DNA of 64,000 bases from Streptomyces asiaticus (GTDB lineage Bacteria; Actinomycetota; Actinomycetes; Streptomycetales; Streptomycetaceae). This document shows, piece by piece, positions 30,068-44,584 of the stretch. Each line of letters opens with the position of its first letter. The stretch's first letter is position 1. Both the position numbers and the translations under genes were made by a program. The notes below the pieces were generated by a model that saw only the letters and a program-made list of their open reading frames with translations, had not been told where the DNA came from and made no database searches. The stretch lies in the NCBI RefSeq assembly GCF_018138715.1, contig NZ_JAGSHX010000006.1, positions 7,440,001-7,504,000 on the forward strand, given 5' to 3'.

Positions 30068-31162
30068 ATGGACCGACGGAAATTTCTTACCGTGGCGACG
30101 GCGGCGACGGGCGTATCGCTGTTGCCCGGGACCGCCGCCGCGGCCGACGGGACCCTGCCCGCGCGGGTACGGCGTCAACTGGACCGGGCGCTCGCCGCCG
30201 GCAGTCCGAGCGCGGTCTGCGGGGTTATCCACGGCGGACGTCCCTACGTGGCGGGCGCGGCCAAGGACGGGGAGGCACCGGCACCGGACGGCCGGACCGT
30301 GTTCCAGCTCGGCTCGATCGGCAAGACACTCACCGCCACCGCCCTGGCCCGCGCCGTCTGCGCGGGCGAGACCCGCCTCGACGCACCGCTCGTCCTGCCC
30401 GCCCGCTTCCCCGTCCCGCGCAAGGGCCCCCGGCGGATCACCCTGGCCGATCTGGCGACCCACACCTCCGGTCTGCCCTCGCTGCCGCCCAACCTCCTCG
30501 CCGGAGCGGATCCCCACGATCCGTACGCCCGCTACACGCTGGACGACCTGGCCGCCGGGCTCGGCGAGACAACCCTGAACAGCGAGCCGGGCAGCACATA
30601 CGCCTACGCGAACCTCGGCTTCGGACTGCTGGGCCAGGCGCTGGCCTTCGACGCCGTGGACGCGATGCTGTGGCGCCGGGTGGCCGCGCCGCTCCGTCTG
30701 TCGGACACCACGACGACCCTGCGGCCGGATATGGCCTCCCGCAAGGCCGTCGGGCATCTCGACGGGGAGGCCGTTCCCGACTGGCACGACCGGGTGCTCA
30801 GCGCGGCGGGTACCTCGATCTACAGCACCGCCGATGACATGCTGCGCTTCCTGGGCGCCCAACTCCGCCCGGAGCGCTCGCCCTTGCGGGCCGCCATCGA
30901 GCTGACCCAGCGGCCTCACTTCACCGTCGACCGCGACCTGCGGCTCGGCCTCGGCTGGCATCTCAGCCCGCTGCCCAGCGGCCGGACCATGACCTGGCAC
31001 AACGGCGGCACCGGCGGATTCAGCACCTGCACGGCGTTCAGCCGGGAGAGCGGGACGGCGGTGGTGATGATGGTGAACACCTTCAGCCAGGAGACCGGCT
31101 CCGGGGCCCGCCCGGTCGACGAGCTCACCATCGCCCTGCTCGGCGAGCTCGACGCGGACTGA
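30068..31162 (+). CDS. Tat-exported serine hydrolase, class C beta-lactamase / DD-peptidase family (364 aa)
   Basis: A twin-arginine signal (MDRRKFLTVATAATG, then SLLPGTAAAA) is followed by the penicillin-binding-protein fold: nucleophile motif S-x-x-K in LGSIGKTLTA, Y-x-N in YAYANLG, and HNGGTGGFS in the position of the K/H-T-G motif. LADLATHTSGLPSLP is the typical family loop. Activity could be esterase, peptidase or beta-lactamase; the sequence cannot tell. It is co-transcribed with the ArsR-like gene and followed by a terminator, forming a self-contained two-gene unit between IS clusters. Confidence 0.85.
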   Translation: MDRRKFLTVATAATGVSLLPGTAAAADGTLPARVRRQLDRALAAGSPSAVCGVIHGGRPYVAGAAKDGEAPAPDGRTVFQLGSIGKTLTATALARAVCAGETRLDAPLVLPARFPVPRKGPRRITLADLATHTSGLPSLPPNLLAGADPHDPYARYTLDDLAAGLGETTLNSEPGSTYAYANLGFGLLGQALAFDAVDAMLWRRVAAPLRLSDTTTTLRPDMASRKAVGHLDGEAVPDWHDRVLSAAGTSIYSTADDMLRFLGAQLRPERSPLRAAIELTQRPHFTVDRDLRLGLGWHLSPLPSGRTMTWHNGGTGGFSTCTAFSRESGTAVVMMVNTFSQETGSGARPVDELTIALLGELDAD

Positions 31163-31280: not shown

Positions 31281-33464
<2,184 letters not shown>

Positions 33465-33707
33465 GTATTTGACCAGCGGCGATAAATAACAGAGCCCCAC
33501 ACCCACTCCTCTCGGCGGCACGGCACCGTCCGGCACCGCCGCGTCAGCGGCCCTGCCCCTCGGAGCGACCGAGCAACGTACGTCCCCTTCAGGCTCCGAT
33601 CCGACGTCAGAGCCGTTGTAGCACTGCCGGCGATATTCGGTACGCCACGCGGTGGCGGGAAGGGGCCGCACCGCCTGCCGCACGTTCACGTGCCGGACCC
33701 GGCAGTG

Positions 33708-33800
33708 TCAGGCGTATTCATCCGCGGTGACCAGGCCGTCCCCATCGACGTCGTAGCGGTCGAAGACCTTCCGCGCCGCCGTCTCCACGATGTCCGCCAT
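33708..33800 (-). CDS. Mini-ORF encoding a single EF-hand motif (30 aa), possibly truncated
   Basis: The peptide MADIVETAARKVFDRYDVDG followed by DGLVTADEYA contains a canonical calcium loop (D-x-D-x-D-G to E). It has a good ribosome site (AAGGACGGAG). It lies 53 bp after the 1505-residue gene and in the same direction, so it could be the last gene of that operon. Streptomyces EF-hand proteins usually have two to four hands in 70 or more residues, so an early stop has probably truncated it. The region 33465-33707 holds nothing else recognisable. Confidence 0.45.
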   Translation of the reverse strand: MADIVETAARKVFDRYDVDGDGLVTADEYA

Positions 33801-33853
33801 GTGCTCCGTCCTTCTGCGATCTTCGCTTACGGGCGCCCATGACTCCAAGATCG

Positions 33854-36800
33854 TCAGCGCGTACCTCTCAGCCCGTCGGGGGACCCCGTCCCGGCCACTT
33901 GTCGGCGGGCTGGGGGTGACTGGGCGGTGCCTTTGGCCGCGTCGAGCGCGTAGACGCAGCGGTCCTTGCTGCACGCGTACACCACGCCCCCGGCGGCCAC
34001 CGGGGATCCGGTGATCTCGCCGCCGGTCGCCAGCTTCCAGCGCAGCTGTCCGCCCGCCGCGTCCACGGTGTAGAGGCAACTGTCGGCTGAGCCGAAGTGG
34101 ACGCGGCCGTCCGCGACGACGGGCGAGCCGATGACCTCGCCGCCCGCCCTGAAGCGCCACTTGGGCGTGCCGGTGACGGCGTCGAGCGTGTAGAGCGCGG
34201 TGCCGCTGCCCAGATGGACCGAGCCGTCGGCCACCAGCACCGGCTCGATGGACTGCCGGGCCTCGGTGGCGATGCGCCAGCGGTCGCGGCCGTTGGCGGC
34301 GTCGATCGCGTAGACCGTGCCGAGGCAGTCGGCGATGTAGATACCGCCGCCGGTGACCGCGGGCCCCGGCGCGTACGCGGGGGCGCACAGGAAGACGGCG
34401 GGCGCCTCGAAACGCCACCGCACATCCCCGCGGGCGATGTCGAGCGCGAGCACCCGCGTCCCCGCCGAGACGTAGACCACCCCGTCGGGCGCCGCCAGCA
34501 GACGCAGCGGCACCCCGCCGCACGACGCCGCGTCGCCCACCGGGTACGACCAGCGCTCCGCGCCGGTGCGCGCCTCGAGGGCGCGCAGCCGCGCGTCCGC
34601 CCGCACATAGACCGTGCCGTCGTGGACGGCCGGGCCGGACTCGGGCGTCTCGAAGTCGGTCTGGAGCCCCTGCATCTCCCACAGCAGCTCACCGTTGGCC
34701 GCCTCCCACGCCTGGACGCCACCGCCGCGCGTACCGGTGACGACCGTGCCGCGGTCGACCTTCAGGGAGTAGACCCAGCCGTCGGTCGACAGCCGCCAGC
34801 GCTCGGCGCCGTCCTCCGCGTCCAGCGCGTACAGAGTCGGGCCGTCGGAGGCGTGGATACGGCCGTCCGCGACCGCCATGGCCCACGCCACGTTACGCGT
34901 CTTGAACTGCCGCCGCCCGGTGGCCACATCGAGCGCGTGTACCTCGAACGACGTGACGTAGAGCAGGTTCCCGGCGACCGTCGGCGTGCCCGAGATGTCG
35001 TCGGACATACGGAACCGCCACGGCCGTCGGCGGTCCTGGCCGCTTCCCGGCGACGTCCCGGCCTCCGCCATGTCTCCCGGGCCGAGGGTCGTCGGCGGAG
35101 GCACGGCCGCTGTCGCCGCATGGATCGGTCCGGCCAGCCGTTCGTCGGCTTGCAGGATGCGTTGCTGGAGTTCGGCGAGGTCCGGACCAGGATCGACGCC
35201 CAGTTCGTCCGCGAGAAGGAGCCGGAAGTGGGCGTACACCGCGAGGGCCTCGGCCTGACGCCCGCTGCGGTACAACGCGAGCATGAGCAGCTCGCACAAC
35301 CGCTCGCGCAAGGGGTGTTCGGCAGTCAGCGCGATCAGTTCGGGGACTGCTTCGGCATGGCGTCCGACCTCCAGTTCCAGGCTGAGACGCTGCTCCAGGA
35401 GCTCTAGTCGCCACTCCTGGAGGCGTATGCGCTGGGCAGCGGCGTATGGACCGGGAACGCCGGCCAGCGGCTCGCCGTCCCACATGTCGAGGGCACGGCC
35501 GAGGAGGGCGATGGCGTGCGGCAGATTGTCCACTGCCTCGGCAGCCCGCGCCTCCTCCGCCAGCTCGCGTGCCACGGTGAGGTCCAGCTCATGCGGTTTG
35601 AGCCGTATCGTGTAGCCCTCTGTATCGCTTGTGGGAAAGTCTTGGAGGGCTTTGCGCAGCCGGGACGCGTACGTCCGAATCGCCGCGTGGGCGGCGTCGG
35701 GCGGCTCTGCGCCCCACAGGCCGTCGATCAACTCGGCGGCCGTCACCGAGCGGTCCTCATACAGCAGGAGGGCAGCGAGCACAGCCCGCTGTTGGGGCGA
35801 GCCGACACTGCGCTTGCGGCCGTCGTGCTGGGCCCGCACAGGCCCGAGCACGGTGAAATGCCAGCCTTTCGTCTCGCGCCATGCCAGCAATGTCCGTGGT
35901 GTCGGCCCTGACTGCTGCGCGGGCGGCGCGGAGAACCGTGGTGTGTCACCCTGGCCCAGCACGAACCGGTGTGCCGCGACGAGTTCGGGACCTGGATCGA
36001 TCCCCAAGTCCTCGTTGAGCATGCGGCGTGTCTCGTCGTAGACGGCGAGTGCCTCCGCCGGCCGCCCGCTGTGGTGCAGGGCCAGCATGAGCAGAGCTCT
36101 GAGGCGCTCACGCAGTGGATGATCCGCGGAGAGGACGCCGAGTTCTTCGAGGACATCCGTGTGCCGCCCCCGTTCCAGCTCAACGGCGAACAGCCTTTCC
36201 TGGAGATTGAGCCGCCACTCCATGAATTGGGCGCGCTGTCCCTCCGCGAAGGGCCCCGGTACCCCGGCGAGTGGTTCGCCGCTGAAGTGCGAGAGGGCAT
36301 CCGCTAGGTGGTCGCGTTCCGCGGTGAGGTCCCCGGCCTGCCGGGCGCGGGATGCCTCGCTTTCCAGCTGCTCGACGGTTGTCAGATCGAGATCGAGTTC
36401 GACGGGGTCGCCAGTGGGGTTCCGCAGCCGGTAGCCCTCGAACTCGTGGGATACGAATACGTCAGGGGCGAGCAACTCGCGCAGCTGCGCGATGTAGCCG
36501 CGCAGGGTCCGTGGCGCGGACATCGGAGGCTCGTCGCCCCACACACCGTCGATCAGCTCGGCAGCGGTGACAACTCGCCCGGTGCGCAGCAGCAAGGCGG
36601 CGAGCACCGCGCGCTGCCGCGAGGGGCCGGCGTCCGCCGCGGTGCTGCCGCGCCACGCCAGCTGTGGGCCGAGAATGGTGAATCGGAGCGGGGCCACGGG
36701 CGCGTATGGGGTCACCGTCTCCGCGCGGGGCTCGGCCGGGGGCGCGGAGCGTACCATGGGCGGAGCGGTCTCAGGGGTGGTCGCGGGCTCCTGGACGTGG

Positions 36801-38371
36801 TACAGCCGCTCCAGGACGGGACCCACCAGCATGGCGAACGCTGATGTCCCCTCCGAGATGGTGCTCTGGCCATGGGGGTCGGCGATCAGTGCCGCGAAGG
36901 CGGGGAGCCTGCCGACGTAAGGCTCCAAGGCACGTCCGACGGTCTCGGCGAGATCGATGCACTGTTCGGTGCTGAGACCGGCCGACAGCAGCTCCCTGAC
37001 ACCAGGCTTGAACTCATAACTGGATTCTTCCGCCCACAGGAGCCGCGACACCGGCGGTTGCCACTGTCGGCGCTCTTCCGCTTCCTCTTCCGAGCGCTCT
37101 TCTGATTCCTCTTCCGAGGGCATGACCAGACCGCCGAGCAGCAGCTCCGCTACATGGGCCGGTGTGCTCGCCGGCAGTGCGGCGGCCCGTACCAACTGCA
37201 TGAGAGGCACGTTCAGCGGCCGGATCGCGGACAGGCGCACGGCGAGTTGATATGCCTCGGGTGAGAAGGAGCTGCGGAACCGCCGGATGAGCTGTTCGGC
37301 GGAGGCCCCGTCCGCGGGCTCCTCGTTCCCCCATCGGCCTCGCTCGTCGCTGGACTGCCCAGGCCACGCTGTCTCGATGAGCCGAGGCACACCGGGCGCG
37401 GCGACGAAGCGGGCCCATGTGGCCAGTGACGAGGCGGAGAGCGTCACCACCGGCAGCGCGGGCGGACCCACGGGCTCCACCGGGACATGGGACAGGGGAT
37501 CCCGCGCCACCACATCTCCGTTCCCCGGGAATGGGCGAGCGGCCGTGAGCAGATAGGGCTCGGTGGCGAGGCCGGTGCCGCGCCACATGCGGCGGGGCAG
37601 GGGAGACAGCGCGACCACCGGTCCGGTCCGGGCCCACGCTGCGATGACGGTGCCGATCGCCGCGTTCCGCCAGGCCGCGTGCACACCGTCGCTGAACACG
37701 AAGACCACAGAGCGGTCTGAGTGTGGCGCGGCGACGGAAGGCTCCCGTCCCCCGGGCGTGAACCGGCGCACCCGAACGTTGCGGAAGACGCCGCTGCGCT
37801 CGAGAAGACGCTTCACTTCCCGCGCCGTCGCGCGCCAGACCCGCATGGACGGGCTGTCGTCCACGAGCAGTACGGCGGTGTACCGCAGTTCCTGGAGGGG
37901 GCGCGGCACCACGTCGAGGACCCCGGACTCCGCTGTCTGCCGTACCGTCGCCTCGATGTCGGTGACGACCCTGTACGGGTGGTCGCTGTGGCCGCGGAGC
38001 GGGCGGATCGCTCCTGCCAGGCTGTGCATGCCGGGCAGGGCTCGCGGGCCCGGGACGCGTACGGCGCGTGCGGGCGTGCCGGATGCGCTTTCGGCGCTCC
38101 CGGTGCCGAACACTTCCCGGCCGCCTGTGGCGTGGGGGCCGGCGGCCGTTTCGGAGGGGCACGCTGGCCGGGGCGACGCAGGTGGAAGACCCACGAGGTC
38201 GGCATCGGCTGCGGTGTGCGGCGCGGCTGGGGGCGGAGCCGCGGTGTGGGTGCCGTCGCCCAGGTCGTGCCCGGCTTTCATGGCCCGCGCCAGCCACAGG
38301 ACGTCGAGGAGTTCGGTGGCTCCCACGTCATAGCCGACGCCGTCCAGGATGCGTCGCAGCCGTTCGATCAT
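33854..38371 (-). CDS. SAV_2336-type vWA-like protein fused to two BTAD modules and a PQQ propeller (1505 aa)
   Basis: Residues 1-35 match the SAV_2336 N-terminal motif (MIERLRRILDGVGYDVG). A vWA-like domain covers about 160-285 with a MIDAS-type DDSPSM at 171-176. A helical SAV_2336-type region runs to about 525. Then come two winged-helix plus BTAD modules as in SARP/AfsR regulators: 562-808 (QRAVLAALLLRTGRVVTAAE, ELIDGVWGDEPP) and 838-1081 (QRAVLAALLLYEDRSVTAAE, ELIDGLWGAEPP). The C-terminal 390 residues form a PQQ-like beta-propeller with repeated LYALDA.xG...W units. The start overlaps the MoxR stop (ATGA). In the known vWA-MoxR-VMAP ternary systems this is the vWA partner. Tandem BTAD plus propeller suggests extra ligand or protein sensing. 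No signal peptide, so cytosolic. Confidence 0.85.
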   Translation of the reverse strand: MIERLRRILDGVGYDVGATELLDVLWLARAMKAGHDLGDGTHTAAPPPAAPHTAADADLVGLPPASPRPACPSETAAGPHATGGREVFGTGSAESASGTPARAVRVPGPRALPGMHSLAGAIRPLRGHSDHPYRVVTDIEATVRQTAESGVLDVVPRPLQELRYTAVLLVDDSPSMRVWRATAREVKRLLERSGVFRNVRVRRFTPGGREPSVAAPHSDRSVVFVFSDGVHAAWRNAAIGTVIAAWARTGPVVALSPLPRRMWRGTGLATEPYLLTAARPFPGNGDVVARDPLSHVPVEPVGPPALPVVTLSASSLATWARFVAAPGVPRLIETAWPGQSSDERGRWGNEEPADGASAEQLIRRFRSSFSPEAYQLAVRLSAIRPLNVPLMQLVRAAALPASTPAHVAELLLGGLVMPSEEESEERSEEEAEERRQWQPPVSRLLWAEESSYEFKPGVRELLSAGLSTEQCIDLAETVGRALEPYVGRLPAFAALIADPHGQSTISEGTSAFAMLVGPVLERLYHVQEPATTPETAPPMVRSAPPAEPRAETVTPYAPVAPLRFTILGPQLAWRGSTAADAGPSRQRAVLAALLLRTGRVVTAAELIDGVWGDEPPMSAPRTLRGYIAQLRELLAPDVFVSHEFEGYRLRNPTGDPVELDLDLTTVEQLESEASRARQAGDLTAERDHLADALSHFSGEPLAGVPGPFAEGQRAQFMEWRLNLQERLFAVELERGRHTDVLEELGVLSADHPLRERLRALLMLALHHSGRPAEALAVYDETRRMLNEDLGIDPGPELVAAHRFVLGQGDTPRFSAPPAQQSGPTPRTLLAWRETKGWHFTVLGPVRAQHDGRKRSVGSPQQRAVLAALLLYEDRSVTAAELIDGLWGAEPPDAAHAAIRTYASRLRKALQDFPTSDTEGYTIRLKPHELDLTVARELAEEARAAEAVDNLPHAIALLGRALDMWDGEPLAGVPGPYAAAQRIRLQEWRLELLEQRLSLELEVGRHAEAVPELIALTAEHPLRERLCELLMLALYRSGRQAEALAVYAHFRLLLADELGVDPGPDLAELQQRILQADERLAGPIHAATAAVPPPTTLGPGDMAEAGTSPGSGQDRRRPWRFRMSDDISGTPTVAGNLLYVTSFEVHALDVATGRRQFKTRNVAWAMAVADGRIHASDGPTLYALDAEDGAERWRLSTDGWVYSLKVDRGTVVTGTRGGGVQAWEAANGELLWEMQGLQTDFETPESGPAVHDGTVYVRADARLRALEARTGAERWSYPVGDAASCGGVPLRLLAAPDGVVYVSAGTRVLALDIARGDVRWRFEAPAVFLCAPAYAPGPAVTGGGIYIADCLGTVYAIDAANGRDRWRIATEARQSIEPVLVADGSVHLGSGTALYTLDAVTGTPKWRFRAGGEVIGSPVVADGRVHFGSADSCLYTVDAAGGQLRWKLATGGEITGSPVAAGGVVYACSKDRCVYALDAAKGTAQSPPARRQVAGTGSPDGLRGTR

Positions 38372-39384
38372 GTCGAGAGCGCTTCGTCCAAGCGGTGCAT
38401 CACTGCGTTGACGAGCTCCTCGTGGCTCAGATCGGCGCCGGTGAGCCGCAGGTGGATGGCGGCGAGAAGCTGGTCCGTCGCGAGCGTCTGGGTGGCGGTG
38501 CGGTGGAGAAAGGTCTCGATGAGGTCATTGGCCTCCGAGAGGGCTGCCTCTCCGAAGTTGTGGCGGACGATGTCCCGAAGCTTGGACTCGTCCGGGTCCG
38601 GGAGGTCGAGCCGGACACAGCGACGCAGAAACGCGGGCGGGAAGTCCCGTTCCCCGTTGCTGGTCATGATCACTACCGGGAAGTGTTCGCAGGACACGAC
38701 TCCCCGCTCGACGTGGGCGCGTTTCCTGCTGCCGGTGGTGAGCACGTCGGCCGATTGCTGGTGCTCGGGCAGCCGCGCCAGTTCGGGGATTTCGAACTCG
38801 CCCTCTTCCAGGACCACCAGCAGGTCGTTGGGCAGATCGATATTTGCTTTGTCCAGTTCGTCGACGAGCAGTACGCGCGGAGCGCCCGTGGCCGCGAGGG
38901 CGGTGCCCAGTGGGCCGAGCCGCAGGTAGTCGTCGATGTCGGATGCCCGGGAGCCGCGCTGCCGGAGCCTGTGCCGTGCGTGTCCGGCCCTCTCGCGCTC
39001 CCGGCGCAGTGACGCCTCGCGGAGTCTGCCCACCGCGTCGTACCGGTAGAGGGCGTCTGCCAGGGTGGAGCGGCTGTTGATCGGCCAGCGCAGCACCTCG
39101 CCGAGGCCGAGGTCCTCCGCCACGGCATGTGCCAGAGACGTCTTGCCCGTCCCGGGGCGTCCAGTGACGAGCAAGGGGCGGCGCAGGTGCAAGGCCGCGT
39201 TGACCACCGCCACCTGATCGCGGTTGAGCAGATACGTTCGCGGCCGGTCGGAGCGCCGGGACGTCGGCACGCGCCGCCAGGGCGGTGGAGCGGGCAGTTC
39301 GGCCGGGCCGCGGAACACCCACCATTCCGCGGGCCGATCGCCGTGGTCGTCCGGCGGTGCGGGCGGTTGCTGCGACACGGTCAC
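38368..39384 (-). CDS. MoxR-type AAA+ ATPase of a VMAP ternary system (338 aa)
   Basis: A MoxR-family AAA+ chaperone-like ATPase: Walker A GRPGTGKTSLA, Walker B RVLLVDELDKANIDLPNDLL, sensor-1 Asn in VIMTSNGERDFPPAFLRRC with the arginine finger, and a C-terminal helical lid. A proline-rich N-terminal 50 residues precedes the AAA core. GTG start with GAGGAG upstream. It lies 34 bp after the VMAP gene and overlaps the vWA-like gene by four bases, so all three are co-translated. MoxR ATPases typically remodel vWA-domain partners, which fits the downstream gene. Confidence 0.88.
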   Translation of the reverse strand: MTVSQQPPAPPDDHGDRPAEWWVFRGPAELPAPPPWRRVPTSRRSDRPRTYLLNRDQVAVVNAALHLRRPLLVTGRPGTGKTSLAHAVAEDLGLGEVLRWPINSRSTLADALYRYDAVGRLREASLRRERERAGHARHRLRQRGSRASDIDDYLRLGPLGTALAATGAPRVLLVDELDKANIDLPNDLLVVLEEGEFEIPELARLPEHQQSADVLTTGSRKRAHVERGVVSCEHFPVVIMTSNGERDFPPAFLRRCVRLDLPDPDESKLRDIVRHNFGEAALSEANDLIETFLHRTATQTLATDQLLAAIHLRLTGADLSHEELVNAVMHRLDEALST

Positions 39385-39418
39385 GGTCTCCTCGGTGGTC
39401 CAGCGGTCACGGTTCTCG

Positions 39419-41629
39419 TCACGGTCGTGGTTCCGGTGTGTCGTGGTTCCGGTCAGGGTGGGTCAGCGTCCATGCGTCGGGAGCGAGCGGTGGGGGTCTG
39501 TGATCCGGCCCGTCGTGGAGGAGCGAGAGCTGTCGGCCGTGGTGAACGGGGGATTCCGGACACGCGAGCGCTTTGGCACGCTCCATGCGCACGGCTTCCG
39601 GAAGGCCGTGGTGGTCGACACCTTCGACGAGATTCACCAGCTCGGCCGCGATGTCCTCACCGTCGCCGTGGCGGTGCCAGAGCACCGTGTGCACTCCGGC
39701 CTGGATGCATTGCTGGAGGAGGGAACTCTGACGCTGCCGGTCGCAGCACACGATCACGACTCCGGCGTCCGGATTGATCTCCAGTACCGCCTGGGCGACC
39801 GCCGGGTCCGCGCTCCGCCCGTCGAGCACCAGGTGGCGTGAGGCGGCGAGCGCCTTCGTGCGCCGCTTCCAGCCGGCGTATGTCTCGCGCGTCCGTTGCG
39901 AACTGCGCAGCACGACCCGGCGCGTGATCCCTGGCAGGAAGGCTCCGTCGGGACCGTTTTCGCCGCACTGCCAGGTGTCCACTTCCAGCCGCAGCCACGC
40001 CGACGCCACGAAGTACTCCACCAGCGCTGTCTCCGGGTGCTCTTCCACCTCGGTGCGCAGCACATGCCGGATGGACTCCACCACGTGATGGCTGGAGACC
40101 TCGGTGTCCTGGGTGAGGACGACGTCGTGTCTGCCCCCGTCGGTCCAGACCCAGATCTGATAGGTGAACCGGTTACCCGGAGCCACCGGAAGAAGCTCAA
40201 TCTGAACCCGGGGTGCGTGTGGCCCGTGGCCCGCGTCGGCGCGATGGGGCAGCCGTGCCTCGGCGGCTACGTCCGCGCGGAACTGCTCGACCCCCGCGAG
40301 CGGGATCCCGAAACGGGCGGCGGCCATGTCCACCCAGGCGTCCAGGTCGTCCGAGGGGTGGGCCCCGCTTTCGCGCTCCTCCAGGCTGACGCGGACGGCA
40401 CCCTGCAGCAGGGGCGGCATCGGTTGTCCGGCGGGCGCTTCGTATCCCTCGAGGACTTCCATCGCGTGTGCGGGTGAGGACACTGCCGGAAGCCCGTCGG
40501 CGTATGGCAGAACCTTTCGCAGCAGAGAGGTGGGGTCGGTCGTGCGGCAGTGAGCGAGCAGTCCGGTGAGATCGCGCTGCTGACGGAGGGTGAGTATTTC
40601 GCGGGGGCTCACCACCCGGGCCACCCGGAGCAGATGTGCCCAGCCCGGCGTTCCATACGGGTCGGGGGAGGGGGCGCGTCCGGAAAGGTGGGTGCGGACG
40701 ACGTCCAGCAGCTCCGGGATGCCGCGCCGTACACCCATGGCCAAGCCGACGAGGCGGGCCGGGTCCGTGACCGCGATGTCACCGGTTGCCCGGCCCAGGC
40801 GCGTCGACAGCCATCGAGTGCACTCCGCCAGCGACTGAGGGTTGGGAAGCAACTGCTCCAGCGCGGCGAGCAATTGCTGTCGTCCGCGCGCCGCCATCGG
40901 AACCGCGACCGGCGGAAGCTCGGGGAGCTCCGACTCGATGGTGGGCAATCCGATGGCGTACATCGCCTGGAGAACCGCCGACGTGTTCAGGTGGCCATCG
41001 TGGTCCGCCCGCGTCGCGCCCGTCGTGCGGGCGTTGCCAACCCCGTGCTCGGCGACCACCACACCCACCACGGCCTGGCGTTCCCGATCCCATAGCGGGC
41101 TTCCGCTGAATCCCTTCGCGACCCGGCCTCCGACGACATCCAGGGCGATCCATTGCCCGGAGGAAACGCGGGGCACCGCGCGCACGGTGGGCAATTCATG
41201 ACCGCTGGTCCAGAGCGCCACGACCTCGCCGCCGTCCCGGTGGGCGAGAAAGGGGGCGGGCTCCGCGCCCGAGGGCGCGGGTATGTCGAGTTCCAGCACT
41301 GCCAGATCGCCGTAGTAGGGGAGCATGTCCGGTGCGGGCGGCTGGGCCGGCCCGCTCCGCCTGGCCCTCGGCGGCCGCCACATCTCCGGGACGACGCGAC
41401 CATGGAACTCCTGTCCGGCCGACACATGCGGCATGCGCAGTCTGACCACCTGGTTCCGGTCGGGCACTGCCTGTGTGAAACGATCTCGGCCCAGTGCGCT
41501 GTTGACCACATGCGCACAGGTGAGTACCAGATTCTGGGTGATGAGGACGCCGGCGCCGACGGGCTGAACCTGGCTTCGCACCGATACGAAAGCCTGGTGC
41601 AACGCCGCGTCGGATGGTGCCCCGCTCAC
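39419..41629 (-). CDS. Trypsin-like peptidase fused to VMAP-C-type domain (736 aa)
   Basis: An N-terminal trypsin-fold protease with His40 (LTCAHVVN), Asp108 (YYGDLAVLELD) and Ser176 (GFSGSPLW). A small helical effector-associated-type region follows at about 245-315 (LLAALEQLLPNPQSLAECTRW). The C-terminal half matches the vWA-MoxR-associated protein C-terminal (VMAP-C) pattern, with VQIELLPVAPGNRFTYQIWVW, EYFVASAWLRLEVDTW and VVIVCCDRQRQ. GTG start with GGAGG 7 bases upstream. It is the second gene of the operon, 16 bp after Trypco1. In the family model, VMAP is the adaptor tying the protease effector to the MoxR-vWA switch. Confidence 0.82.
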   Translation of the reverse strand: MSGAPSDAALHQAFVSVRSQVQPVGAGVLITQNLVLTCAHVVNSALGRDRFTQAVPDRNQVVRLRMPHVSAGQEFHGRVVPEMWRPPRARRSGPAQPPAPDMLPYYGDLAVLELDIPAPSGAEPAPFLAHRDGGEVVALWTSGHELPTVRAVPRVSSGQWIALDVVGGRVAKGFSGSPLWDRERQAVVGVVVAEHGVGNARTTGATRADHDGHLNTSAVLQAMYAIGLPTIESELPELPPVAVPMAARGRQQLLAALEQLLPNPQSLAECTRWLSTRLGRATGDIAVTDPARLVGLAMGVRRGIPELLDVVRTHLSGRAPSPDPYGTPGWAHLLRVARVVSPREILTLRQQRDLTGLLAHCRTTDPTSLLRKVLPYADGLPAVSSPAHAMEVLEGYEAPAGQPMPPLLQGAVRVSLEERESGAHPSDDLDAWVDMAAARFGIPLAGVEQFRADVAAEARLPHRADAGHGPHAPRVQIELLPVAPGNRFTYQIWVWTDGGRHDVVLTQDTEVSSHHVVESIRHVLRTEVEEHPETALVEYFVASAWLRLEVDTWQCGENGPDGAFLPGITRRVVLRSSQRTRETYAGWKRRTKALAASRHLVLDGRSADPAVAQAVLEINPDAGVVIVCCDRQRQSSLLQQCIQAGVHTVLWHRHGDGEDIAAELVNLVEGVDHHGLPEAVRMERAKALACPESPVHHGRQLSLLHDGPDHRPPPLAPDAWTLTHPDRNHDTPEPRP

Positions 41630-41645
41630 GCTCGGCCTCCGCCCG

Positions 41646-42125
41646 TCACGACGTCACGGAACTCGATGCTCCGGTGGAGGAACCGCCGGACTGCGAGGGG
41701 GGAGCGGCAGTCGGCTGCTCGGAGAGGTTCCACGTGGCGCTCACCGTGAAGCTCGTCTCGCCTTTGCCCGAGAAGACGCCCAGGCTCAGGTCGCTGCCCA
41801 GCGTGGCGCCGAATTCCACGGTGACCTCGTCAGGGCGCACGGGGAACTGGGAGAAGGATTGGTGGATACTGCTGAGGACACCGCCCAGCGGGTTCAAAGC
41901 CTGGGTCAGAGCCTCGCCCCCGCGGGTGAGTGCCTGCGCGGCGCGGCTGCCGACGCTCACTGGCTGGGCGCTGCCGAAATCCTCCGGCAGTTCCAGATCA
42001 GAGGGCTCGCCTGTCCTGCTCCCGTGCTGCGAACCATCCGCCGGGACCTGAGTGGAACCGGTCCTGGGCGCGAGATGAAGGCGCACGGTGGAGCCGTCGT
42101 CGAAAGTCAGATGCACGTCCCCCAT
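41646..42125 (-). CDS. Trypsin-co-occurring domain 1 (Trypco1) protein (159 aa)
   Basis: An all-beta start (MGDVHLTFDDGSTVRLHL) and the family hallmark PDEVTVEFGATLGSDLSL, with a helix ALTRGGEALTQALNPLGGVL before it and a SFTVSATWNL strand after. These match Trypco1, a small domain that accompanies trypsin-like proteases in predicted conflict systems. It is the first gene of the operon, 16 bp before trypsin-VMAP. No strong ribosome site precedes the ATG, so translation may begin on a leaderless or weak site. Confidence 0.75.
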   Translation of the reverse strand: MGDVHLTFDDGSTVRLHLAPRTGSTQVPADGSQHGSRTGEPSDLELPEDFGSAQPVSVGSRAAQALTRGGEALTQALNPLGGVLSSIHQSFSQFPVRPDEVTVEFGATLGSDLSLGVFSGKGETSFTVSATWNLSEQPTAAPPSQSGGSSTGASSSVTS

Positions 42126-42906
42126 GCGGGAGATTTTGCCACGGCGGGCAGCTGCCGTCGCGCGATTGCGCAGATCCAGTGGGCGCGGGGCTGAGCGCCT
42201 GGGCCGAAAAGACTCCGTTCCGGGGCCTGTCGTGGGGCTGCTGCCGTAGGAATTCGCGGTAGTACGGCTATCGCTAAACGGTATCGCGCCCTGGAAGGCC
42301 GGGGACGTTGGGATGCGCTGCGGGCGGCGGGGCCGCGTACCGGTGTCGTGGGCGGGCCGATGGGGTGAGGTCGGTGACCTGGTTCGCCGATGAGCTGGAA
42401 AGAACGGCGAAGGAAGGACCCCTCCGGCATACTTGCGAGCGCGGACCACCCTGCTCGCCAGTGACGGCCATGTGGCAGAGCGGGTGCAGATGACGCTGAT
42501 GTGTGTTCGGGATGACGCGCAGGACGTGCAGCGGGTCCCCGGTGTCCGTCACCCGGGGAAGGGCCGATGTGCCGTTGGTCCACACGCAGATTGCTTGGAA
42601 GACGGCATCGAAGCTGTCGGCGAAGCAGGCGCTGCGATCGCGGATGACGACCTGGCCGACTTGGCATGGTCGCCGAAGTCCATGAGGTAGTGGCCTGCCT
42701 GCAGCGGGTGTGGTGGAGAGAGTTTGGGTCTGTGCTGGGCGTGGCTTCGGGCGTATGCTGTACATATGCGACGCCCGGTCACGATGCCAGCTTCCAGGCA
42801 ACTCGGGACGCAGAAGCCGAAAAGGGTGGACTCCTTTACTCGGCTGATTGTGCGTCAGCACGACCTGGGAGAACGGACCGGAGCACGCCGCTCGGATTCG
42901 ACGCAA
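42126..42906. other. Intergenic region with a transposase scrap
   Basis: The first 250 bp should hold the promoter of conflict operon 2, but no clear -10/-35 pair stands out. On the minus strand about 42440-42680 reads VIRDRSACFADSFDAVFQAI, a scrap of a DDE transposase core in one frame with HITHQR-type tail. Short open frames to the right lack support. Confidence 0.45.
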
Positions 42907-43380: not shown

Positions 43381-44584
43381 GTGCCGATTATTACATCCGA
43401 GCTGGTCAGGCGGCATGTTCATAGGTGTGGAGAGTGCCGCCGAGTTGGTCCTTCCGCCGGATATCGAGGCGGTTGAGCTGTTCGGGATTGGTGAGGGGAC
43501 GGGGGAGTGGGCGCAGGGGTGCTGCGGCGCGGAGGGTGCGGTGGGGTCGGTGCTGGTTGTAGAAGGTTTCGTATTCGCGGAGTGCGTGCAGGAGGTGCGC
43601 TTGGTTCCAGATGAGGGTGCGGTCGAGTAGTTCGGTTCTGCAGGAGCGGATCCAGCGTTCCATTACTGCGTTCATGCGGGGTACGCGGATACCGGTCTTG
43701 ATGATGGCGACGCCTTCGTCCTCGAGTACGGCGTCGAAGGCATCCGTGTATCTGCGGTCGCGGTCACGGATCAGATACTTCACCGTCGCGCCGGCCCCGT
43801 GGAGGTCCATGGCGAGGTTCCGGGCAAGTTGGGTGGTCCACGCTGCGGTGGGGTGGGCGGTTGCGCCGAGAACGCGTATACGCCGCGTGGCGTGCTCGAT
43901 GGCGGCGAAGACGTACAGGCGTGCTCCGGTCAGCGTCCGGGTTTCGAAGAAGTCGGCGGCAAGAATTGCGTGTGCTTGGCCGCGGAGGAAGGTGGTCCAG
44001 GTCTGGCGGTCGCGCTGGGGTGCGGGATCGATGCCGTTGTGCTGGAGGATCTCCCATACCGTGGAGGGGGCTACCTTGATCTCGAGGGTGGCGAGTTCGC
44101 CGTGGATTCTTCTCTATCCCCAGCTCGGGTTTTCTCGGACCATGCGCAGGATGAGGGTTTGGATGCTGCGGTGGGTGGGTGGTCGTCCTGGCCGTTTGCG
44201 GCGGGAGGCGTTGGCGTGGCGGCGGTGTAGGAGGTCGCGGTGCCAGCGGAGGACCGTGTCGGGGGAGACGATCAGATGAAGTCGCCGGAGTGTGGTGCGG
44301 GGGAGCCGGTGCAGCAGGGCGGCGAGGAATATGCGGTCGGGCGGAGTGAGCCGGGGTTTGGCGACCTGGCGTTGAAGGACGGCCAGTTGTGGCGCAGGGT
44401 GAGAATCTCGACGTTCTTGTCGGTGTCGCTCATCGGCAGCAGCCGCAGGAGAGCGAACACGTTGGTAAGCGTGAGGTAGAGGAGTCGCAGCAGCACGATG
44501 GATCATCCTGGCGTACCAGCCCGGTGACTCTCAGCCGCATCCTTAATCCTGCAGGTCACAGCCTACGGATGAGGTTTTCGGCAC
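43381..44584 (-). mobile_element. rve-type insertion sequence, inactive
   Basis: Terminal repeats start GTGCCGATTATTACATCC (left) and GTGCCGAAAACCTCATCC (right, reverse strand). They are related to the TTGCCGG-type repeats at 27660 and 51102 but distinct, so this is a different member of the family. Confidence 0.75.
43406..44496 (-). pseudogene. rve transposase with frameshift and amber codon
   Basis: The N-terminus (LLYLTLTNVFALLRLLPMSD) shifts frame after LTLRH near 44390. In the next frame QRQVAKPRLTPPDRIFLAAL continues to ENPSWG, where TAC of the conserved SWGYRRIHGEL has become TAG (about 44111-44113). The remainder (AADFFETRTLTG, LIRDRDRRYTDAFDAVL, NAVMERWIRSCRTE) is intact to the stop. 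Confidence 0.82.

What the first reader, a model, noticed from the sequence alone, without database searches (positions are those of the whole stretch)
33708..42125. VMAP ternary conflict operon with a tandem-BTAD, PQQ-propeller-fused vWA partner
Seen: a four-gene minus-strand operon with gaps of 16 and 34 bp and an ATGA overlap, encoding Trypco1, trypsin fused to a VMAP-C-like domain, a MoxR AAA+ ATPase, and a 1505-residue SAV_2336/vWA-like protein. Known: vWA, MoxR and VMAP proteins form a predicted three-part NTP-dependent conflict system with proteases as effectors. Unusual: the vWA partner carries two complete winged-helix/BTAD modules, otherwise found in SARP regulators, plus a C-terminal beta-propeller. 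This would place transcription-factor-like ligand or protein sensing directly on the switch protein. All three trypsin residues, Walker motifs and the MIDAS-like DDSPSM are intact, so the system looks functional.
Basis: partly seen in the sequence, partly recalled or inferred. Interest (0 to 1): 0.87.

Follow-up and report, generated by a model that had tools for sequence, protein, structure and literature searches.

The report
Conflict system copying host AfsK/AfsR parts
A predicted bacterial self-defence operon in a Streptomyces carries pieces resembling the cell's own antibiotic-control proteins AfsR and AfsK, and such pieces appear to be overwritten from the host's original genes, as if the system must keep resembling them.

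Summary
The operon is real: Trypco1, trypsin-VMAP, MoxR, and a 1505-aa SAV_2336/vWA protein with two SARP modules and a propeller. It belongs to the known VMAP ternary systems. New is the source of the vWA arm. The propeller is a copy of the host's own AfsK propeller (92% protein; 93.5% DNA). In 6 of 9 other genomes with this vWA subtype the arm is tandem SARP + NB-ARC + TPR, an AfsR-like protein. The copy has been overwritten from afsK by gene conversion: synonymous divergence falls from 0.49 to 0.03 in tracts and segment trees conflict. Two related genomes, G020 and G149, show the same with afsR (369- and 199-bp identical tracts); G007 and G016 do not. SARP module 2 keeps AfsR's DNA contacts (10/10 in 5, 9/10 in 2 of 7 tandem proteins); module 1 has lost 3-7 of 10. 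Mechanism is inferred: the arm stands in for the AfsK-AfsR pathway, as bait/sensor or as released competitor, coupled to trypsin. No function was tested, and neutral conversion is not excluded.

The parts
41646..42125 (-). Trypco1 protein (a longer GTG start at 42449 is open)
   Evidence: PF19493 1.6e-16; start positions
39419..41629 (-). VMAP: N-terminal trypsin-like peptidase and C-terminal VMAP-C domain
   Evidence: Trypsin_2 residues 25-190, VMAP-C residues 487-708; triad H40/D108/S175
38368..39384 (-). MoxR-type AAA+ ATPase with N-terminal WWVFRG and PPWRR motifs
   Evidence: AAA/AAA_5; motifs, compared by eye with those in PMC7159879 section 9
33854..38371 (-). 1505-aa vWA switch protein
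36911..38320 (-). SAV_2336 N-terminal / vWA region (residues 18-487), DDSPSM at 171
   Evidence: NF041121 8.7e-95
35885..36700 (-). SARP module 1 (residues 558-829), AfsR-type DNA contacts degenerate
   Evidence: AfsR 8hvr 4.2e-64; contact residues
35087..35884 (-). SARP module 2 (residues 830-1095), the ten tabulated AfsR DNA contacts intact, activation residues R59Y and E76A
   Evidence: AfsR 8hvr 1.9e-88
33912..35042 (-). AfsK-derived beta-propeller, 93.5% DNA identity to the host's own afsK
34338..34817 (-). main gene-conversion segment with own afsK (overlaps a 167-bp identical run, about 34668-34834)
34188..34277 (-). second converted segment
33963..34052 (-). third converted segment (inside a 122-bp identical run, about 33945-34066)

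Best explanation
This is a VMAP ternary conflict system whose vWA arm is a stand-in for the host's AfsK-AfsR signalling pathway. SHOWN by sequence: the operon; an AfsR-like tandem SARP, of which module 2 keeps AfsR's DNA-contact residues; an AfsK propeller where relatives have NB-ARC-TPR; and overwriting of the arm by the resident afsK (here and in a S. violaceusniger remnant) or, in two other related genomes, exchange with the resident afsR. INFERRED: the arm must stay similar to the resident pathway because it takes part in it. It sits on AfsR-type DNA sites through module 2 and presents the AfsK/AfsR sensing surface. When an invader or signal engages that surface, the vWA-MoxR pair relays this to the trypsin-VMAP, whose proteolysis is the damaging or signalling output.
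For: Core domains and gene order. Propeller 92% protein / 93.5% DNA identical to own AfsK. Relatives' arm is SARP-SARP-NB-ARC-TPR; for G020, G007 and G016 it is 57-75% identical to AfsR genes and 51-57% to AfsR paralogues. AfsK phosphorylates AfsR (PMC10936776, passages). Conversion: informative sites 50 orthology / 14 by-genome / 1 other (P=0.0005). Segment trees conflict: V+Vs rejected on the converted segment (AU 0.0009), V+K on the rest (about 5e-97). dS 0.49 against 0.03. Direction afsK to vWA: distance of V to the two closest outgroup afsK genes falls from 13.5-14.0% to 3.8-3.9% while K's is 3.2-4.5% throughout. afsR equivalent: identical tracts of 369 bp (G020) and 199 bp (G149), largest cross-genome vWA-AfsR run 71; by-genome 49 against 11. 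Module 2 DNA contacts 9-10 of 10 in 7 of 7 tandem proteins tabulated. V-K dN/dS 0.12 in unconverted codons. A sensor-on-vWA model is in print: PMC10907252 (passages).
Against: No functional, expression or phage data. Conversion between paralogues can be neutral: G007 and G016 show none (by-genome 96 against 97; longest runs 29 and 20), and the G037/G049 arms are only about 37-41% identical to their own AfsR. G020/G149 and G037/G049 are related pairs, so the counts are not independent. The window's own module 2 is only slightly nearer to own AfsR (58-61%) than to two AfsR paralogues (53-56%), and the unrooted TPR tree sets the arms of G020, G149, G007, G016 and S. clavuligerus apart from all AfsR genes and paralogues (98%), so descent from afsR itself is not settled. 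Retained DNA contacts fit an effector as well as a tethered bait. The AfsK version is known from one intact copy and one broken remnant. V-Vs dN/dS is 0.18-0.19 (Vs is a pseudogene) against 0.03-0.14 for K-Ks, so constraint on the copy looks weaker. Segments were chosen after seeing V-K divergence; only the Vs+Ks grouping is independent of that.
Confidence: 0.42

Rival explanations
1. Effector reading: the trypsin-VMAP cleaves the vWA protein and frees the SARP-propeller arm, which binds AfsR promoter sites as a dominant-negative (or rogue) regulator and shuts down or re-routes the AfsR regulon during attack.
For: Kaur et al. place effectors on the vWA C-terminus and suggest dominant-negative or decoy roles for inactive host-like domains. 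Module 2 keeps DNA contacts while activation residues (R59, D71, E76, R173; changes beyond E76D) are altered in 5 of 7 proteins, R59Y and E76A here (residue roles from PMC10936776 section 8). Exchange with afsR would keep DNA specificity matched to the host regulon.
Against: G020 and G016 module 2 keep all four of these residues, and in G037/G049 the change is only D71E. It does not explain why the AfsK propeller should track host AfsK. No cleavage site shown.
Confidence: 0.3
2. Neutral reading: arms are opportunistic captures of local domains, and gene conversion is the ordinary recombination of similar paralogues, without selection for resemblance.
For: Conversion is patchy, absent in G007/G016, and concentrated where the sequences are still similar (47 of 49 by-genome sites lie in the SARP2-NB-ARC part, not TPR). 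No matched control of unrelated paralogue pairs was run.
Against: Two proteins of one pathway supply the arms. Open frame and V-K dN/dS 0.12 for the intact copy. Conversion inferred in four genomes, between replicons in G020.
Confidence: 0.27
3. Not a defence system but a developmental or metabolic regulator of the AfsR family that uses MoxR-vWA remodelling and proteolysis to tune antibiotic production.
For: AfsR/AfsK parts; DNA contacts intact. I saw no defence assay for this family in the passages read.
Against: Patchy distribution (10 of 150 genomes), decay in S. violaceusniger, arm swapping (Schlafen-type helicase arm in G076), and four full VMAP-C loci plus a fragment in this genome: all usual in conflict systems.
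Confidence: 0.15

Closest known systems
VMAP ternary systems (Kaur et al. 2020, PMC7159879), trypsin/Trypco1 branch
   Same: Gene order, VMAP-C, trypsin with Trypco1, MoxR N-terminal motif, vWA with variable C-terminal domains; wHTH and propeller arms are mentioned and decoy roles suggested there
   Different: The main text has no occurrence of BTAD, AfsR, AfsK, PQQ or gene conversion (term searches); its supplementary architecture tables were not read
DGR-linked VMAP systems with vWA-borne sensors (PMC10907252, passages seen)
   Same: vWA C-terminus proposed as sensor, VMAP peptidase as effector; the sensor is changed by a copying process
   Different: There a reverse transcriptase diversifies a lectin fold; here gene conversion from a host gene makes the arm more like the host protein
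Beta-propeller ternary systems (subsystem 4 of Kaur et al.)
   Same: Propeller C-terminal to the vWA
   Different: VMAP-C present; bpMoxR profile below cut-off; propeller is AfsK-derived
AfsK-AfsR (host Ser/Thr kinase and SARP regulator; AfsR structures 8hvr, 8k60, 8jke)
   Same: Source of the propeller; nearest solved relatives of both SARP modules
   Different: No kinase domain; fused to a vWA switch; extra SARP module; NB-ARC-TPR missing here

Membership tests
VMAP ternary conflict system | VMAP-C domain | tested here: met
   PF20028 3.9e-32, above cut-off
VMAP ternary conflict system | Gene order VMAP, MoxR, vWA | tested here: met
   also in 4 of 4 relatives looked at and S. clavuligerus
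VMAP ternary conflict system | MoxR N-terminal motifs WxhapG and PsWRxa | tested here: inconclusive
   WWVFRG fits; PPWRRV fits except that the last residue is not aromatic (fit judged by eye)
VMAP ternary conflict system | vWA core with two metal-site aspartates | tested here: met
   DDSPSM at 171 and FSDG at 226 (strand positions judged by eye); SAV_2336_NTERM 8.7e-95
VMAP ternary conflict system | [D/E]xxx[D/E]xxxa motif in the N-terminal extension | tested here: inconclusive
   not found by eye in residues 1-35, although the NCBIfam profile matches from residue 18
VMAP ternary conflict system | Trypco gene beside trypsin-VMAP | tested here: met
   PF19493 1.6e-16
VMAP ternary conflict system | Acts against invaders | not testable with these tools
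   needs phage assays
Beta-propeller ternary system | bpMoxR and a TPR/propeller third component in place of VMAP | tested here: not met
   bpMoxR 18.0 bits against cut-off 27; VMAP-C present
SARP transcriptional regulator | SARP as N-terminal domain of a free regulator | tested here: not met
   SARP modules follow a vWA switch domain
AfsK kinase | N-terminal kinase domain | tested here: not met
   no kinase family among Pfam hits at E<=0.1; AfsK equivalog 748 bits against cut-off 1300

The most novel reading that the evidence does not exclude
A bacterial integrated decoy kept up to date by gene conversion: the conflict system carries replicas of the host's AfsK/AfsR regulatory hub and is periodically overwritten from the genuine genes, so that anything that attacks or manipulates the hub also triggers the system.
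Probability: 0.28. Interest if true: 0.92.

Novelty: new variant of a known kind. Interest (0 to 1): 0.72.

Why it matters
What the variable arms of VMAP systems do is open: one paper makes them released effectors, another makes them sensors. An arm assembled from parts like those of two proteins of one named, well-studied pathway, and kept similar to a resident copy, gives that question a concrete target. It also suggests that Streptomyces antibiotic control (AfsK-AfsR) is a surface worth guarding or seizing during infection, and that gene conversion can keep an immune mimic matched to its host.

Tried and rejected
Beta-propeller ternary subsystem: rejected, VMAP-C present and bpMoxR below cut-off. 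Recent whole-gene duplication of afsK: rejected, only the propeller part matches at DNA level, and unconverted segments are 13.5% diverged. One old capture without later exchange: rejected by quartet counts and trees. Conversion from vWA into afsK: less likely, since K's distance to its two closest outgroups is not raised in the tracts. The mismatch-clustering permutation test was dropped for afsR because all seven pairs tried, controls included, gave 0 of 3000; longest runs, dS and quartets were used instead. Of the AfsR contact residues, S80 and Q81 (tabulated) were left out of the table; own AfsR also differs there (D and A). A plasmid copy of the propeller: no megablast match. Phages carrying the parts: SARP-like matches in 4 of 50,697 phage records, all unannotated 'Bacteriophage sp.' from faecal samples at 34-39% identity, and partial propeller matches in 6; not pursued. 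No structure prediction was run.
Full report
OBSERVATION. Pfam and NCBIfam give Trypco1, trypsin + VMAP-C, AAA+ (MoxR-type by its N-terminal motif and position) and SAV_2336_NTERM + two Trans_reg_C/BTAD modules + PQQ_2 propeller. The window lies at C6:7440001-7504000 of an 11.9-Mb, 6-contig genome with five VMAP-C matches, one of them partial and on a smaller contig. Of the other three full loci, the caspase-VMAP one (L038) has a TPR arm and the EAD2-VMAP one (L040) an NB-ARC-TPR arm; the third (L039, trypsin-VMAP) shows only a weak zinc-ribbon match. Different arms in paralogous systems of one genome is what is described for this family (PMC7159879 section 19).

THE PROPELLER IS HOST AfsK. 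In the own genome, residues 1086-1489 match a 1030-aa open frame at 92% protein identity. Its ORF is 949 aa with an N-terminal protein-kinase sequence (kinase recognised by eye) and lies about 10 kb from the AfsR gene. NCBIfam's AfsK equivalog aligns to residues 1060-1485 of the window protein. DNA identity is 93.5% over 1131 bp without gaps.

THE SARP ARM IS AfsR-LIKE. Module 2 matches S. coelicolor AfsR (8hvr) at 1.9e-88 and module 1 at 4.2e-64. Against own-genome genes module 2 is 58-61% identical to AfsR and 53-56% to two AfsR paralogues, a small margin. A vWA N-terminus query at E<=1e-65 found the subtype in 10 of 150 same-genus genomes, own included. Of the nine others, six carry SARP-SARP-NB-ARC-TPR (G007, G016, G020, G037; G149, G049; in G049 NB-ARC is below its cut-off, no TPR family passed 0.001, and the N-terminus is cut by a contig end, but the protein is 84% identical to G037's). 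G091 has one SARP-like module + NB-ARC + TPR; G065 a partial BTAD + AAA + weak TPR; G076 a Schlafen-type helicase and no SARP. Synteny of Trypco1, VMAP and MoxR was checked in four and in S. clavuligerus. So in the window lineage an AfsK propeller stands where relatives have NB-ARC-TPR. For G020, G007 and G016 the arm is 57-75% identical to AfsR genes and 51-57% to AfsR paralogues. An unrooted tree of the TPR part groups the arms of G020, G149, G007, G016 and S. clavuligerus (98%) apart from AfsR genes and paralogues alike, so whether the arm came from afsR itself is open. In the NB-ARC tree the G020/G149 arms sit next to the AfsR of those genomes rather than with the other arms, but the branches that decide this are weak (54-85%).

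DISTRIBUTION OF THE PROPELLER. An AfsK-propeller protein query at E<=1e-120 gave exactly one match in 142 of 150 genomes, two in the window genome (AfsK and the fusion) and none in seven, six of which are assemblies of about 630 or more contigs. A DNA query over the linker and first part of the propeller at E<=1e-70 matched 2 of 392 genomes: the own fusion and one AfsK (G384); more diverged fusions would be missed. S. violaceusniger NBRC 13459 retains a remnant: residues 1071-1500 with an internal stop, plus downstream DNA matching window 33503-33834, and no match to the other operon proteins in the 16 kb held.

GENE CONVERSION WITH afsK. Mismatches between the vWA propeller (V) and own afsK (K) are clustered: identical runs of 167, 122, 111 and 93 bp. 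Of 20,000 codon-position-preserving permutations, 5 reach the longest run and 0 reach the sum of the five longest or of squared runs. V against its S. violaceusniger orthologue (Vs) is not clustered (722 of 5000); K against Vs is (1 of 5000). With S. violaceusniger afsK (Ks), informative sites are 50 for V+Vs/K+Ks, 14 for V+K/Vs+Ks and 1 for the third grouping. The 14:1 excess has one-sided P=0.0005, and the first two classes are segregated along the gene (3 of 100,000 shuffles). Splitting the propeller into 660 converted and 458 unconverted columns gives conflicting trees: V+K (96%) and Vs+Ks (97%) in the first, V+Vs (100%) in the second. AU tests reject V+Vs in the first (P=0.0009) and V+K in the second (about 5e-97). 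I chose the segments by V-K divergence, so V+K is partly built in; Vs+Ks is not. V-K dS is 0.49 in unconverted and 0.028 in converted codons; K against another species' afsK (G059) is 0.33 and 0.50 in the same codons. The two closest outgroup afsK genes (G150, G056) are 13.5-14.0% from V in unconverted and 3.8-3.9% in converted columns, but 3.2-4.5% from K in both, so afsK was the donor. dN/dS is 0.12 for V-K in unconverted codons, 0.18-0.19 for V-Vs (Vs is broken) and 0.03-0.14 for K-Ks: the copy is under purifying selection, perhaps weaker than on AfsK.

EXCHANGE WITH afsR. In G020 the AfsR-like arm shares a 369-bp identical tract with its own afsR at 80% overall identity; in G149, 199 bp. 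Among the 36 cross-genome pairs of a 4 by 10 matrix the longest run is 71; the own pairs of G007 and G016 reach 29 and 20. Between G020 and G149, themselves 84% identical over the whole vWA protein, by-genome sites outnumber the third grouping 49 to 11 (P=4e-7). By-genome excess also appears when either is paired with G007 or G016 (129:45, 129:58, 110:58, 116:59). It is absent for G007 with G016 (96:97), the negative control. 47 of the 49 by-genome sites lie in the SARP2-NB-ARC part; in the TPR part own-pair dS is about 0.5-1.1. Within the G020 tracts V falls from 20.7% to 6.7% from the AfsR of G149, while K is at 6.7-8.1% throughout SARP2-NB-ARC, which fits afsR as donor. G020's operon is on a contig identical in length, coordinates and a tested 9-kb stretch to a Streptomyces sp. 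NBC_01237 plasmid record, while its afsR is on another contig, so exchange crossed replicons.

WHICH SURFACES ARE KEPT. Ten DNA contacts from the AfsR cryo-EM paper were tabulated (PMC10936776; passages and section 8); S80 and Q81, which also differ in own AfsR, were left out. Module 2 keeps all ten in 5 of 7 tandem proteins and nine in the other two (S46A in G016, R94H in G149); module 1 has 3-7 of ten changed in 7 of 7; AfsR orthologues keep ten in 10 of 10 genomes (S. clavuligerus not tabulated). This holds in G037/G049 although the arm is only about 37-41% identical to own AfsR. Of the residues whose mutation reduced activation (R59, D71, E76, R173), module 2 has changes beyond E76D in 5 of 7: R59Y and E76A here, E76R in G007, R59H in G149, the mild D71E in G037/G049; none in G020 and G016. 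This favours retained DNA binding with partly relaxed activation.

MECHANISM. Two published schemes exist: VMAP peptidase freeing vWA-borne effectors (PMC7159879: section 19 whole, the first parts of sections 9 and 10, passages elsewhere; the release scheme as retold), or a vWA-borne sensor triggering the VMAP peptidase (PMC10907252, passages). I favour the second in a modified form: the arm is a stand-in for the AfsK-AfsR pathway, anchored by module 2 on AfsR-type sites, and its engagement is relayed through vWA-MoxR to the trypsin. Conversion from the host genes would keep the stand-in convincing. The dominant-negative effector reading is close behind, and a neutral reading cannot be excluded. 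None of the functional steps is shown.

NOVELTY. Nine text searches of the open-access library (most lists were capped at 10-20 papers and only the starts of abstracts were shown) listed no title or abstract start that reports AfsR/AfsK arms or host-gene conversion in these systems. The key paper's main text has no occurrence of AfsR, AfsK, BTAD or gene conversion, but it does mention wHTH domains, propellers, propeller-kinase-related arms and decoys. Its supplementary architecture tables could not be read here, so the SARP architecture itself may be listed there. The system is a new variant of a known kind.

Noticed in passing
window 31354-33440 (+) and 43406-43810 (-): Transposase/integrase fragments (rve_3, HTH_21) lie on both sides of the operon, so it may sit in a mobile or rearranged region.
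   Followed up: partly
window 30068-31162 (+): Serine beta-lactamase-family hydrolase (PF00144 1.9e-51) beyond the transposase fragments.
   Followed up: no
L037 4481-5821 and G000:C6:5390079-5392226; G001:C1:6764599-6769598: Beside afsR lies a second AfsR-like gene whose match lacks the SARP part, in this genome and in S. violaceusniger; in the latter the afsR match is split over two open frames.
   Followed up: no
L121 4524-9374 (G076): Same vWA subtype with a Schlafen group 3 helicase arm in place of the SARP arm.
   Followed up: partly
L133 (NZ_CP027859.1 from 681075, S. clavuligerus ATCC 27064 plasmid pCLA1): A full-length 1828-aa orthologue with syntenic MoxR, VMAP and Trypco1 matches in a named strain; the plasmid table lists no gene there.
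   Followed up: partly
phage records MT835531, MT835530, MT836527, MT836049: Unannotated faecal 'Bacteriophage sp.' records encode SARP-like stretches (34-39% identity to module 2).
   Followed up: no
L039 4590-9269: Another own-genome vWA protein of 1559 aa whose arm has no clear Pfam match (weak zinc ribbon only).
   Followed up: no
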